DNA of 45,795 nucleotides. It comes from a virus. Of this stretch, positions 16,029 to 23,189 are shown in pieces; position 1 is the stretch's first letter; each line of letters opens with the position of its first letter. The notes below the pieces were generated by a model that had not been told where the DNA came from, did not search any database, and saw nothing but the letters and a program-made list of their open reading frames with translations. The stretch spans positions 1 through 45,795 of the IMG/VR virus record IMGVR_UViG_3300024308_000036. One strand, 5' to 3'. The position numbers were made by a program, and so were the translations under genes.

Positions 16029-16727
16029 TTAGGCGATGGCTTTCAAGGCCATGACGACGGGGTGATCTGCTTTAATCAGACATTCCCGCGCCTCTTTACT
16101 CCCGCGCTCGGTGGCCATCCCCAGCTTGACCAGCAGACCAATGATATAGCTTGCTTGGGTCGGGCCGTTGCACTCGGCAGCCCAGTAACCGGCGGTGAAA
16201 CGCTCTTTTACTTTCATGGTGTCGATCAGGTGGGCGATGGTGTTATGCCCTGTCCGCTTGGTGGCGGCTGTCGGATCCAGTGTTTTCAGTGCGTCATTTG
16301 CTTTTGTGAGATCGATCGAGTCGGGACGCTTGTTCTGTGCGATGCAAGCAACCAAGGTTGCAATCTGTAATTTGTGTTCACGGCTGAACCCGCCAGCTTT
16401 GGGATCCCGTGCCAGTCGGGACGCATCTACGCCCAGCTGCTTAAGGATTTTCATCTCTTTGTCAGTCATACCGGAGATCAGGCCGTTGCAACGGGCATGG
16501 GTTTCGGCGGCCATTCCTACAGCGCCCAGCTTGGCGCGGCGGCTTGCCTTTTCCAGATCCAGATCTGGATTGTTCACAAGGGCGTTTTTCAAGGACTCCT
16601 CTTTGATGGCGAGGAAATCCATTGCGGAGCCAGTCATATATTGACGGATCTCGGCGTTGGTGGTCGGTGCTTTTTGTTCGGTGGCAGCGGCTACAGTGGC
16701 GGCGGCGGTGGTGATTTCTTTGGTCAT
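16029..16727 (-). CDS. Hypothetical protein under operator control
   Basis: A 232-residue protein. The N-terminal 25 residues are Ala/Thr-rich (TTAAATVAAATEQKAPTT), then a helical domain (ASRRAKLGAVGMAAETHARC) and a C-terminal part with RTGHNTIAHLIDTM and ERFTAGYWAAE. No family is recognised. The promoter TTGTCA, 17 bases, TATTAT overlaps an operator copy at 16808-16823, so it is a member of the regulon. Confidence 0.65.
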   Translation of the reverse strand: MTKEITTAAATVAAATEQKAPTTNAEIRQYMTGSAMDFLAIKEESLKNALVNNPDLDLEKASRRAKLGAVGMAAETHARCNGLISGMTDKEMKILKQLGVDASRLARDPKAGGFSREHKLQIATLVACIAQNKRPDSIDLTKANDALKTLDPTAATKRTGHNTIAHLIDTMKVKERFTAGYWAAECNGPTQASYIIGLLVKLGMATERGSKEARECLIKADHPVVMALKAIA

Positions 16728-16807
16728 GATAGGATTCCTTATTAGCGATAATTTAGAGTTAGTTTTTAGTTTTCATCGTCACGCTGTATTGCGTTTCGAT
16801 GAGCAGA

Positions 16808-16823
16808 TAATAAGTGTTTACTG
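16808..16823 (-). promoter_or_regulatory. 16-bp operator within promoter
   Basis: TAATAA-GTGT-TTACTG matches 10 of 12 arm positions. Read leftward it lies between TTGTCA and TATTAT with 17-base spacing and reaches into the -10 box, a typical repressor position. Confidence 0.65.
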
Positions 16824-17067
16824 ATCGAGTGACAATAGAAAACTTTACTTTTTTAGTGCTTAAAAACGAAAAACATGAAAATTTGCGAGCTTAAGCACAA
16901 ATTCATGATCTTTTCGCTTATGAGTGCGTTCCCGCGCTTTTCGCATCTTGTAGGCCCATTCTTTTCGTGATAATCGCGTGTCGTGCGAGTCCAGGCCGCT
17001 CCCCCGTCGTCGCCCTCAGCGCCCCAACGCTCCCCAGCTGCTCCCACCCACCATCCGCACCATCGAG

Positions 17068-17129
17068 AAAGCCACCTAGTCCTAAAGGCGCCGACCAGTA
17101 AGCCCATGGCGGCACCGGTAAGCCCATGT
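17068..17129 (+). repeat. GC-rich repeat with AGTAAGCCCATG (copy A)
   Basis: The 40 bases at 17068-17108 (ending CCAGTAAGCCCATG) match 18749-18787 at roughly four of five positions. GGTAAGCCCATG is repeated at once at 17118-17129. A related word, CGGGGAACCATGGG, is at about 17181 and 17731. The interval 16830-17834 holds no convincing gene. Confidence 0.55.
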
Positions 17130-17165
17130 GCGAGAGCCCCGCGGTCTGCCACGGCTGAACACGGA

Positions 17166-17179
17166 GAGATCAATTTGTC
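17166..17179 (-). repeat. Isolated iteron-like site
   Basis: GAGATCAATTTGTC is identical to 14 bases of the reverse complement of the iteron at 23190-23206. It lies 5 kb from the origin in non-coding DNA. Confidence 0.45.
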
Positions 17180-17311
17180 ACACCACGGGGAACCATGGGC
17201 CGGCATGGAGGCTGGCCAGCTGGGGCTGAAACGGGAGAGAACGGCGAGCGAAGGGGGAGGGAGATGGCCGGAAGTTTGGTACCGCGGCAACCCGAGGGCC
17301 GGGCAACAGGC

Positions 17312-17418
17312 AAAAAAAACGGGCTCAACACACGAGCCCGCTATCAAATCGCTAATGTCAGTGTCCCTATCAGTGACGCTGATGACGCTACTTTATCGAT
17401 GTCTTGCTGGACGTACAA
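17312..17418 (-). ncRNA. Candidate small RNA with terminator
   Basis: On the minus strand, TTGTAC (17413-17418), 17 bases, TAAAGT (17390-17395) is followed about 50 bases later by a strong terminator: AGCGGGCTC-gtgtgtt-GAGCCCG and a run of eight T (about 17340-17313). The transcript would be about 70 bases with no open frame. The terminator is certain; the promoter is modest. Confidence 0.45.
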
Positions 17419-17499
17419 CTGAGGCACGGTATAGCAACAGCAAAACCATGCTTCCCGAGCGAAAAGTCTAAATTCAAGCAGAGCTCGTCATGGGAATCG

Positions 17500-17620
17500 C
17501 GAGGGAAGCGCTCTCAGTCGCTTAAATTGCGCTTTCCAGCATGTGAGATGAGTCATCGTAGCGACTCGACAGGTCAAACGCTTAAATCGCGTTTAAGAGC
17601 GTCAAAATTCTGCAGGGGCT
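17500..17620. other. AGCG/CGCT-rich non-coding stretch
   Basis: Contains closely spaced words GCGCTC, GTCGCTTAAATTGCGC and AAACGCTTAAATCGCGTTTAAGAGCG. Similar stretches occur at 10400-10540, 21770-21840, 24005-24045 and 38175-38300. No gene is seen. Confidence 0.35.
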
Positions 17621-17834
17621 TCCTTGGGGATCCTGAAAACTGTATGCAGCTCATACACACACCACAGCCGGAGATGAAAAGACCCCTAGCCTGACGCAGG
17701 AAGACCCTCCGTCTTGGGACTCGCCCGCGGGGAACCATGGGGCGCTGGCATGTCAAAAAGGGCCAGCGATAAAACTGCCTACGCTGGCCAGATGGTGATA
17801 GGAACTGTTGTTGGTTATTCCGCAGGCTACGACC

Positions 17835-18891: not shown

Positions 18892-19332
18892 TCAGTGATA
18901 GTCAGCTGGCAACGCCTCGTAGTGAGGAACGTTGTGCATCGAACTACTTGCGACCCCGAAATGCAAGCCATAGGCCGGCATCGTAATACTCTCAAGAGCC
19001 TTCACCTCACTCAGCGAGAAGGTGATATAGACTGGCTCGTTCATGGCTGAAAGCAGCTTGATGGTGTCCATTTTCAGAACGCCACATTCAAGGCCAAACT
19101 GCTCATCCTGGAACAAAGCCGATCTCGTCATAGCCAGTATGTGATACCAACCAAACCGGATGTCAGTCGGCATCCAAATCTGGTCAGATTCACTACGAGA
19201 GCTCACTTGAGATACCACAGGCTCTTTGTCATCTGCCCACCCTGTCATGATGTAAACTGGGACACCAGTCTTGGAGTGGACTAACACATTCAAAGCCCCT
19301 GTCTCCGGGGTAAAACACACGCTAATCATCAA
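18892..19332 (-). CDS. Hypothetical protein
   Basis: A 146-residue protein rich in beta strands (MISVCFTPETGALNVLVHSK, VYIMTGWADD, PVYITFSLSEVKALE). There is no signal peptide and no recognised family. A terminator lies just downstream. It stands next to, and is transcribed away from, the structured RNA region. Confidence 0.55.
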   Translation of the reverse strand: MMISVCFTPETGALNVLVHSKTGVPVYIMTGWADDKEPVVSQVSSRSESDQIWMPTDIRFGWYHILAMTRSALFQDEQFGLECGVLKMDTIKLLSAMNEPVYITFSLSEVKALESITMPAYGLHFGVASSSMHNVPHYEALPADYH

Positions 19333-19369
19333 TTCCGCCTGCTTACACAGCCGGGGTTAGGAAGACCCT

Positions 19370-20105
19370 TCATCCGGTCAACCGCGCCCGACATTCGATA
19401 TAAGAACAAACGGAGCGGGCGATTACATTGTCTCGCGTTTAGAACACACCTTACACTTGCACACTAACACCCGATTATCCCCGCTCGGGCAAGGAGAGGT
19501 CTTCACTCACTCTCTCCGTTCACACGTAGCACCTTTCCTATCTCTGATACCTACACAATGGGAGGTTTGCGTAGGCCAGCCTGACCGGAAGACTCATTAC
19601 CCTGATGGTTGCCTGAACCCTATAGGCGACAGGGGATTTTTGTTATTGAGCCCATACCGCAAGAGGAGCAATTTGCTCATTACCAGAGGGCGTTGTTCTC
19701 CTGCCGTTCATTACTGAATCTGCGTCTACCGCGTACTGCTTTTCAATGCCGCGCATTTCTTTTCGTGCGTTCTGGCAGTTCGATTCAAGGAGCCCTTCCA
19801 GTGAGAAGGGTGACTGTTTGCTCCCGTTTTGCTTAACACTGTTCTATCGTCTCCATAGTGAAGGATGAGCGTTTCGCGTTCGGTTTTTAGCAAGAAAAGT
19901 TGACTCAGCGCTAATTACCTATCGAGTTGCGCAACATCCTCGCTATGGGGAGTTGAATCATTAGAACCCGTCCGATAAGGTCTCGAACGAGTTAGTGAGA
20001 GTTCTGGGGACGGCTCTGTTTTGAGGACTGGCCGTTCCCTTAACTCTCACGTTCAACCCTCGGTACAGCTTTTCACTGCACCCCCGTCCGTGTCGTATTT
20101 TTTAC
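19370..20105 (+). ncRNA. Candidate large structured RNA
   Basis: About 735 bases without a plausible gene but dense in hairpins: CCCGA/TCGGG (19470-19489), GGAGAG/CTCTCC (19493-19517), GTTGCCT/AGGCGAC (19608-19630), GCGCA/TGCGT inside TGCC/GGCA (about 19747-19776), GCCCTTC/GAAGGGT (19792-19811) and a 56-base hairpin GTGAGAGTT...AACTCTCAC with inner GGGGACGGC/GCCGTTCCC (19995-20050). Four stems contain G-T oppositions that pair as G-U only if the plus strand is the RNA. The last hairpin (GGTACAG/CTGCACC) is followed by TATTTTTTA at about 20097. Phages and plasmids are known to carry large ornate RNAs such as GOLLD and ROOL; class membership here is unproven. Ends are approximate. Confidence 0.55.
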
Positions 20106-20153
20106 TGCGTATTTGAAAAGTCATCACTTTGGTCGCCGCAGCGACAAGGCCTC

Positions 20154-20399
20154 CTAGCTGTATTGAAAAATCTTTGGAACGACCACGGGTTCGTCTTCAA
20201 CCGGGTCATCGTCTTCGCCGAAGTACACACTCAAGAGAGCGGAAAGGAATCGGCGGTTCCTCTCCTCAAACTGTTCGAGAGACTCCTCGCCCAGCGGGTG
20301 TTTGTCTCGATGCTGTTCGAAGAAGGCCTGAACCTCATCCTCGGACGTCATCTTCTCAATCTGCTGGGTCACGCTTTTGCCTTTGACCAGGATCTTCAT
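20154..20399 (-). CDS. Hypothetical acidic protein
   Basis: An 81-residue acidic protein (KMTSEDEVQAFFEQHRDK, YFGEDDDPVEDEPVVVPK), the last gene of the XRE operon. Its start overlaps the stop of the gene before it by one base (TAATG), which suggests coupled translation. No family is recognised. Confidence 0.6.
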   Translation of the reverse strand: MKILVKGKSVTQQIEKMTSEDEVQAFFEQHRDKHPLGEESLEQFEERNRRFLSALLSVYFGEDDDPVEDEPVVVPKIFQYS

Positions 20400-22120: not shown

Positions 22121-22309
22121 TATCTTTAGATCTTTTTAGAGATCTTTTTAAAGATCTTTTTAGGCTCCGCCAGCCCAGTCGTGGCGCGGCCTCCAGAGGA
22201 GCGAAGTGGACAAATCGATCTCGCACGGTAGACAAACTGATCTCATATAGTGGACAAACCGATCTCTGGCAAGAATTTGAAAACACAGGATATAAACAAA
22301 TTATCCACA
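22121..22309 (+). other. Replication origin (oriV): AT-rich 12-mers, iterons, DnaA box
   Basis: Three GATCTTTTTA words at 22129-22138, 22141-22150 and 22153-22162, spaced 12 bases, form an AT-rich melting element with Dam GATC sites. Three 17-bp iterons, GTGGACAAATCGATCTC (22206-22222), GTAGACAAACTGATCTC (22228-22244) and GTGGACAAACCGATCTC (22250-22266), follow with exact 22-bp spacing. A perfect DnaA box, TTATCCACA, is at 22301-22309. This is the layout of Rep_3/iteron origins. Confidence 0.85.
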
Positions 22310-22400: not shown

Positions 22401-23189
22401 ATGCAAACAGCCATCACCAAGAGACGCGGCCGGAAGGTCGTACAATCAAACCAGCTGACAGAGGCCGCCTACTCTCTTACCCGAGATCAGAAGCGGATCC
22501 TCTACCTCTGCATGTCAAAGATGCCGAACGTGCCGGAAGGTGAGCCTATCACTCATGACGGCAAGTTCTCTATCACTGTTGCCGAGTATGCGGAGATTTA
22601 CGATCTCCCATCGAGCGCGGCCAGCCAGGACATTCGTGCTGCACTGAGCCGGTTCAGAGGCAAAGAGGTGACGATCTACAGGCCGGAGTTCGATGACGGC
22701 GACGACAAGGGCTATGACGCATACCCGTGGCTGGTTAAGCGCAGCGTTCGCCCGAGCATCGGGGTTTACGAGATCAGCATCAACCAAGAGCTGATGCCTC
22801 TGATGGCCGGCTTGCGCCGGAACTTTACGGTTTACGACATCATCGAGGTCAACTCGATCACCAACCCTCTGGTTATGCGCCTGTACGAGACGCTTTGCCA
22901 GTTCAGGGGCAACAGAAGCGAAGGCACAATCACCCTGGCTGTAGAGTGGATCAGAGAGCGGTATCAGCTGCCGGCCAGCTACAACCGGATGCCTGACTTC
23001 CGCAAGCGCTTCCTGGATGTGGCCATTCAAGAGATCAACACCAAGAGCCCGCTTCGGGTGTCGGTCACTGAGAAGAAGACTGGCAGAAGCATCACTCACC
23101 TGGAGTTCAAGTTCACTGATACCGAAAGGAAAAAGGCGATCGGGAAGAGCTCGGAGACCGGAGAAGAGCCGGCACAGCCTAAGCTTTAG
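22401..23189 (+). CDS. Rep_3 (RepB/RepE-like) replication initiator
   Basis: A 262-residue initiator with the family opening KVVQSNQLTEAAYSLTRDQK and RILYLCMSK, then the two winged-helix domains; the second includes NPLVMRLYETLCQFRGN and WIRERYQLPASYNRMPDFRK. Length fits RepE/RepB proteins (about 250). Monomers bind iterons to open the origin; dimers usually repress rep. Iterons lie on both sides of the gene. The C-terminal tail (GKSSETGEEPAQPKL) is flexible. Confidence 0.9.
   Translation: MQTAITKRRGRKVVQSNQLTEAAYSLTRDQKRILYLCMSKMPNVPEGEPITHDGKFSITVAEYAEIYDLPSSAASQDIRAALSRFRGKEVTIYRPEFDDGDDKGYDAYPWLVKRSVRPSIGVYEISINQELMPLMAGLRRNFTVYDIIEVNSITNPLVMRLYETLCQFRGNRSEGTITLAVEWIRERYQLPASYNRMPDFRKRFLDVAIQEINTKSPLRVSVTEKKTGRSITHLEFKFTDTERKKAIGKSSETGEEPAQPKL

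What the first reader, a model, noticed from the sequence alone, without database searches (positions are those of the whole stretch)
19370..20105. Large structured RNA on the plus strand
A gap of about 735 bases has no gene but many hairpins, including a 56-base one at 19995-20050. In four stems the only non-Watson-Crick pair is G-U if the plus strand is transcribed and A-C if the minus strand is, which picks the plus strand. Large ornate RNAs (GOLLD, ROOL) are known from phages and mobile elements, so this could be a new member or a new class.
Basis: partly seen in the sequence, partly recalled or inferred. Interest (0 to 1): 0.78.

Follow-up and report, generated by a model that had tools for sequence, protein, structure and literature searches.

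The report
Large structured RNA of Aeromonas phage-plasmids

Summary
The gap is real: window 19333-20153 (821 bp) lies between two minus-strand genes, has no conserved protein and matches no Rfam family. Eleven Aeromonas plasmids of 103-135 kb (phage-plasmids) carry the same gap at the same place. They form two clades that are about 53% identical across the gap, yet its length barely changes (821 versus 822-827 bp). Structural alignment between the clades gives a conserved-fold score far above shuffled alignments (z = 7.8, minus strand). Coding controls from the same elements reach at most 2.2, and the first 63 bases of the gap give -0.8.

The strand must be corrected. The plus strand scores 4.2. 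The informative G-U/Watson-Crick switches, including those in a helix whose arms lie about 330 nt apart and in a 15-bp hairpin, form pairs only on the minus strand.

Best reading: a new sequence family of large structured phage RNA, co-directional with its neighbours. A roughly 680-nt core is followed by a hairpin predicted to cover the start region of the next gene. Works like GOLLD/ROOL: possible. Member of them: no. Not shown: transcription, ends, function, or occurrence outside Aeromonas.

The parts
19333..20153 (-). Gene-free gap that holds the structured RNA (m1-m821; m = 20154 minus window position)
   Evidence: No gene or conserved ORF; same position in 11 Aeromonas plasmids, length 821 versus 822-827 bp at ~53% identity; conserved structure z 7.8 on minus
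20091..20153 (-). First 63 bases after the upstream stop codon: not part of the conserved fold
   Evidence: Structural z -0.8 on minus, 37% identity
19949..20090 (-). Domain I (m64-205): multibranch domain with a conserved closing helix (m93-102/197-205) and two hairpins
   Evidence: z 3.8 on minus, 4.1 on plus; helices found in 95-100% of structural alignments, with double changes
19995..20050 (.).
   Evidence: m104-112/151-159, m116-126/136-147; G-U on plus, A-C on minus; z 5.4 minus, 4.2 plus
19853..19948 (-). Domain II (m206-301), closed by CCATAG/CTATGG, with the inner hairpin TTAGCG/YGCTAA
   Evidence: z 3.8 on minus, 3.3 on plus; invariant closing helix (helix 12)
19414..19852 (-). Domain III (m302-740): core held by long-range helices
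   Evidence: z 3.9 on minus, 1.3 on plus
19765..19773 (-). 5' arm of long-range helix m381-389/705-713 (AGARCGCAC)
   Evidence: 97.8% of cells paired; G-U/A-U and G-C/G-U switches between clades (helix 23)
19441..19449 (-). 3' arm of the same helix (GTGYGTTCT), about 330 nt downstream of the 5' arm
   Evidence: helix 23
19831..19848 (-). 5' arm of long-range helix m306-323/718-733
   Evidence: 12 pairs, all invariant (helices 17 and 18)
19421..19436 (-). 3' arm of the same helix, within the conserved block GTTCTAAACGCGAGACANTGTAATC
20083..20086 (-). 5' arm of the proposed terminal closing helix (CGGG, m68-71)
   Evidence: m68-70/736-738 in all 12 structural alignments; pair probabilities 0.78-0.86 in the window; pairs never vary, so no covariation
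19416..19419 (-). 3' arm of the proposed terminal closing helix (CCCG, m735-738)
19333..19414 (-). Domain IV (m740-821): hairpin next to the following gene; its outer stem has 15 pairs
   Evidence: 100% of cells paired in the outer stem, five one-sided G-U-type switches, on a sequence-only alignment (helix 1); z 2.8 on minus, 1.2 on plus
18892..19329 (-). Downstream gene (145 aa, no known family); its start region AGGCGGA..ATG is predicted paired in both clades
   Evidence: No Pfam or PHROG family; pairing probabilities; 47-48% identity between clades
20154..20399 (-). Upstream gene (81 aa), last of an apparent HTH regulator - 125 aa - 81 aa series

Best explanation
The gap encodes, on the minus strand, a large structured RNA (core about 680 nt, window about 20090-19416) that belongs to the resident genes of a family of Aeromonas phage-plasmids. 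The RNA acts as RNA: two local domains (I, II) and a core (III) are held together by long-range helices, and a 3' hairpin (IV) abuts the next gene. Shown by computation: conservation of the fold between two clades that are only about half identical, and the strand. Inferred: it is transcribed together with the upstream regulator genes, because no sigma-70-like promoter or intrinsic terminator was found in the gap on that strand; it is then cut out or accumulates as a stable large RNA, as GOLLD and ROOL do. Also inferred: hairpin IV covers the start region of the 145-aa gene, so that making or refolding the RNA and translating that gene are linked. Its biological role (copy number, lysogeny or particle production) is a guess.
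For: Structural alignment win x L006: minus score 515.6 against 353 +- 21 for alignments shuffled with the local identity pattern kept (z 7.8, none of 24 reaches it); 138 pairs in helices of 4 or more against 52 +- 11. Same result in 12 of 12 sequence/parameter combinations, minus always above plus. Controls: two coding regions z -1.2 to 2.2; first 63 bases of the gap -0.8. On the sequence-only alignment A1 (not fitted to the structure, although the structure was derived from its sequences): 77.8% of cells paired against 74.7 +- 0.4 shuffled and 37-43% with partners slid by 1-3 columns; 28 double-change cells against 13.7 +- 2.7. Outer stem of domain IV: 15 pairs, 5 one-sided switches, 0 breaks. 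Length conserved at 53% identity. No conserved ORF. No promoter- or terminator-like site on minus within the gap in either clade. Phage-plasmid context: sister element has capsid, terminase, tail and holin genes, described as a phage-like plasmid in PMC9430807.
Against: Only two effective lineages, so per-pair covariation is limited (14 pairs with double changes on A1, not significant by number of pairs: 64/500 shuffles). Within-clade substitutions do not discriminate (17 keep, 16 break on minus). My nulls keep column composition and local identity but not dinucleotides. The hairpin in domain I has its G-U pairs on plus. No expression data. No relatives outside 11 Aeromonas plasmids. The shared transcript, processing and link to the downstream gene are inference.
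Confidence: 0.55

Rival explanations
1. Long cis-regulatory leader: the whole structure is the 5' untranslated part of the 145-aa gene's mRNA and its only job is to control that gene, for example by hiding or exposing its start region; no separate RNA exists.
For: Same direction as the gene and ends next to its start codon; the last 120 nt are the most conserved (79% identity); start region predicted paired in both clades; no own promoter or terminator found.
Against: Size and closed multi-domain architecture far exceed usual leaders (general knowledge); domains I-III keep their fold though far from the gene; no known leader family matches.
Confidence: 0.25
2. A discrete large RNA on the plus strand.
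For: The 56-base hairpin has G-U on plus and A-C on minus in both clades; domains I and II score about equally on both strands; a terminator-like site lies on plus at 19866-19882.
Against: Whole-gap z 4.2 versus 7.8, with no excess of G-U-type changes on plus; domains III and IV fail on plus (z 1.3 and 1.2); the informative pairs of the long-range helix and the domain IV stem would be A-C mismatches on plus.
Confidence: 0.05
3. DNA-level element (for example a single-strand origin, or a protein-bound region) whose hairpins work as DNA, not RNA.
For: Lies about 2.2 kb from the replication gene and its repeats; domains I and II show no strand preference; a 24-base motif at its end recurs in a second gap.
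Against: Strand asymmetry of G-U-type changes (z 3.9 versus -0.3) is expected of RNA, not of DNA; helix arms are up to ~430 nt apart.
Confidence: 0.08
4. Degenerate former coding or intergenic DNA with chance structure.
For: Overall identity is low (53%) and relatives are few.
Against: z 7.8 against shuffles and clean negative controls; near-constant length; two clades keep it between genes that are themselves 47-67% identical.
Confidence: 0.04

Closest known systems
GOLLD RNA (Rfam RF02032)
   Same: Size about 800 nt, in phage-related elements, conserved 3' region with a less conserved 5' region (described for GOLLD in PMC12286853)
   Different: No match to the model in the window; no tRNA in the window
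ROOL RNA (Rfam RF03087)
   Same: Large structured RNA on phages and on a megaplasmid; deleting the L. salivarius copy lowered the megaplasmid/chromosome ratio from 1.61 to 1.16 (PMC5643018)
   Different: No match to the model (the control genomes gave no ROOL match, so that negative alone is weak)
Unnamed ~800-nt ncRNA of Vibrio phage ICP1 between gp139 and gp140
   Same: Similar size, phage of a Gram-negative host, no tRNA array, no Rfam class (PMC7567579)
   Different: No sequence similarity beyond chance; the ICP1 gap shows an evident terminator-like hairpin with a T run by eye, this one has none found
OLE RNA (RF01071) and HEARO RNA (RF02033)
   Different: No matches

Membership tests
GOLLD | Match to the Rfam covariance model RF02032 | tested here: not met
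   no match in window or in clade B, E up to 10
GOLLD | Often near tRNA genes | tested here: not met
   No tRNA in the window; 'often' only, so not decisive
GOLLD | Forms a multimeric RNA-only cage | not testable with these tools
   Needs cryo-EM or native gels
ROOL | Match to the Rfam covariance model RF03087 | tested here: not met
   one search had no positive control
OLE | Match to the Rfam covariance model RF01071 | tested here: not met
   one search had no positive control
HEARO | Match to the Rfam covariance model RF02033 | tested here: not met
Large structured phage/plasmid ncRNA (kind, not family) | Long gene-free region with an evolutionarily conserved secondary structure | tested here: met
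Large structured phage/plasmid ncRNA (kind, not family) | Accumulates as a discrete transcript | not testable with these tools
   No expression data available here

The most novel reading that the evidence does not exclude
A new class of large ornate phage-plasmid RNA in Gammaproteobacteria, unrelated in sequence to GOLLD and ROOL, which folds into a closed core that assembles or scaffolds something during lysogeny or particle production, and whose 3' hairpin ties its folding to translation of the adjoining gene.
Probability: 0.3. Interest if true: 0.8.

Novelty: new variant of a known kind. Interest (0 to 1): 0.55.

Why it matters
Large ornate RNAs are abundant in some phages and plasmids, form RNA-only assemblies, and have no known function. 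This would be a further, unrelated family, in phage-plasmids of culturable Aeromonas strains (isolates of A. caviae, A. veronii, A. hydrophila and A. jandaei carry it), several of which carry antibiotic resistance genes. That makes its role directly testable by deletion in a laboratory host.

Tried and rejected
(1) More relatives: protein probes for the flanking genes and an adjacent conserved gene in viral and bacterial genome contigs, DNA motifs, distant BLAST in phages: nothing beyond the 11 plasmids. The peptide and DNA patterns are exact, so distant relatives can be missed. (2) More distant plasmids with a related regulator (Raoultella, A. veronii 69 kb, A. media): no similarity to the gap. 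(3) RNAalifold on the sequence alignment of the whole gap: covariation term slightly unfavourable (+5.15), probably because the divergent parts are misaligned; replaced by structural alignment. (4) Within-clade substitutions as a test of strand: uninformative. (5) Protein-coding gap: rejected. (6) AlphaFold of the downstream protein without relatives: mean pLDDT 36, uninformative. (7) Same RNA as in phage ICP1: no similarity. (8) A second gap (16728-17834) as a sister structured RNA: its most conserved stretch shows no significant conserved fold (z 0.7), although an earlier, differently cut piece gave 3.5.

Full report
WHAT IS THERE. The window is a fragment of an Aeromonas phage-plasmid. The gap searched as DNA hits 11 plasmid records, all Aeromonas, 103-135 kb, and no phage record. 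The window carries a Rep_3 initiator, a ParA-like protein, ribonucleotide reductases, thymidylate synthase and SbcCD-like proteins. A sister element has capsid, terminase, tail and holin genes and is described as a phage-like plasmid related to Pseudomonas phage nickie in PMC9430807. The gap is 19333-20153, between minus-strand genes. Below, m-coordinates count along the minus strand (m = 20154 minus window position).

IS IT MORE THAN CHANCE. The 12 copies, counting the window, form two clades, 96-100% identical within and 51-53% identical between. Flanking proteins are 47-67% identical between clades. No protein is conserved in the gap. No Rfam family matches. I wrote a small Sankoff-type structural aligner (base-pair probabilities from ViennaRNA) and aligned window against L006. 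The minus-strand score is 515.6; shuffles that keep the local pattern of identities and gaps give 353 +- 21 (z 7.8). Plus gives 437 against 347 +- 21 (z 4.2). Coding stretches of the same elements give z -1.2 to 2.2. The result holds for 12 of 12 sequence and parameter combinations.

STRAND. G-U pairs distinguish the strands: on the other strand they become A-C. On minus the number of one-sided (G-U-type) changes is 42 against 21 expected (z 3.9); on plus 22 against 24. The clearest cases lie in parts that align by sequence alone. The outer stem of the 3' hairpin (m740-758/805-820) has 15 pairs, five of which switch between clades, with none broken. Helix m381-389/705-713, whose arms lie about 330 nt apart, has two switches and one broken cell in 45. 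By domain: I z 3.8 minus, 4.1 plus; II 3.8 and 3.3; III 3.9 and 1.3; IV 2.8 and 1.2; first 63 bases -0.8 and 1.1. Both flanking genes run on minus too.

HOW IT MAY WORK. The conserved fold starts near m64 and appears closed by a short helix m68-71/735-738, whose core was found in every structural alignment but without variation. Hairpin IV follows, and the start region of the 145-aa gene is predicted to be paired in both clades. No sigma-70-like promoter or intrinsic terminator is found on minus within the gap in either clade, so I infer a transcript shared with the upstream regulator genes, from which the RNA may be processed. Whether it ends as a separate large RNA (preferred) or stays a leader (main rival) is not settled here.

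COMPARISON WITH THE KNOWN. GOLLD and ROOL are the closest in size, setting and character; GOLLD too has a conserved 3' and a variable 5' part (PMC12286853), and deleting the ROOL RNA of a Lactobacillus salivarius megaplasmid lowered that plasmid's copy number (PMC5643018). Direct model searches find neither, nor OLE or HEARO; for ROOL and OLE the tool's control genomes were silent, so those negatives are weaker. A large orphan ncRNA of phage ICP1 (PMC7567579) is not similar.

LIMITS. Two lineages only; the number of pairs with double changes on the sequence alignment is not by itself significant (14 against 11.4 +- 1.9), although double-change cells, cells paired and covariation score are beyond all 500 shuffles, a control that the tool warns is liberal for related sequences. 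The structure was derived from the same sequences. My shuffles do not preserve dinucleotides; single-sequence dinucleotide shuffles also show excess stability, but on both strands. No expression evidence exists here. Metagenome collections could not be searched.

Noticed in passing
window 16728-17834, minus strand (conserved block about 17319-17685): A second unannotated gap of about 1.1 kb, 74-77% identical between clades in its core, ending in a strong conserved intrinsic terminator (GCGGGCTCGTGTGTTGAGCCCGTTTTTTTT); possibly a second non-coding transcript, without significant conserved fold.
   Followed up: partly
window 19346-19369 (minus); L006 3654-3677 (minus); diverged copy at window ~17663: A 24-base motif AGGGTCTTCCTNNNCCCGGCTGTG is shared by the 3' end of the structured RNA and the second gap; only these places in the stretches searched; meaning unknown.
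   Followed up: partly
window 16029-16727, minus strand: A 232-aa protein without known family is 94-95% identical between clades whose neighbouring proteins are only 47-67% identical.
   Followed up: no
L019:5174-5497 (NZ_CP091177.1 55174-55497): The sister phage-plasmid carries a gene annotated as RNA chaperone Hfq, which could matter for a resident large RNA.
   Followed up: no
window 22205-22266: 2.8 copies of a 22-base repeat upstream of the Rep_3 initiator gene (22401-23189), probably iterons of the replication origin.
   Followed up: no
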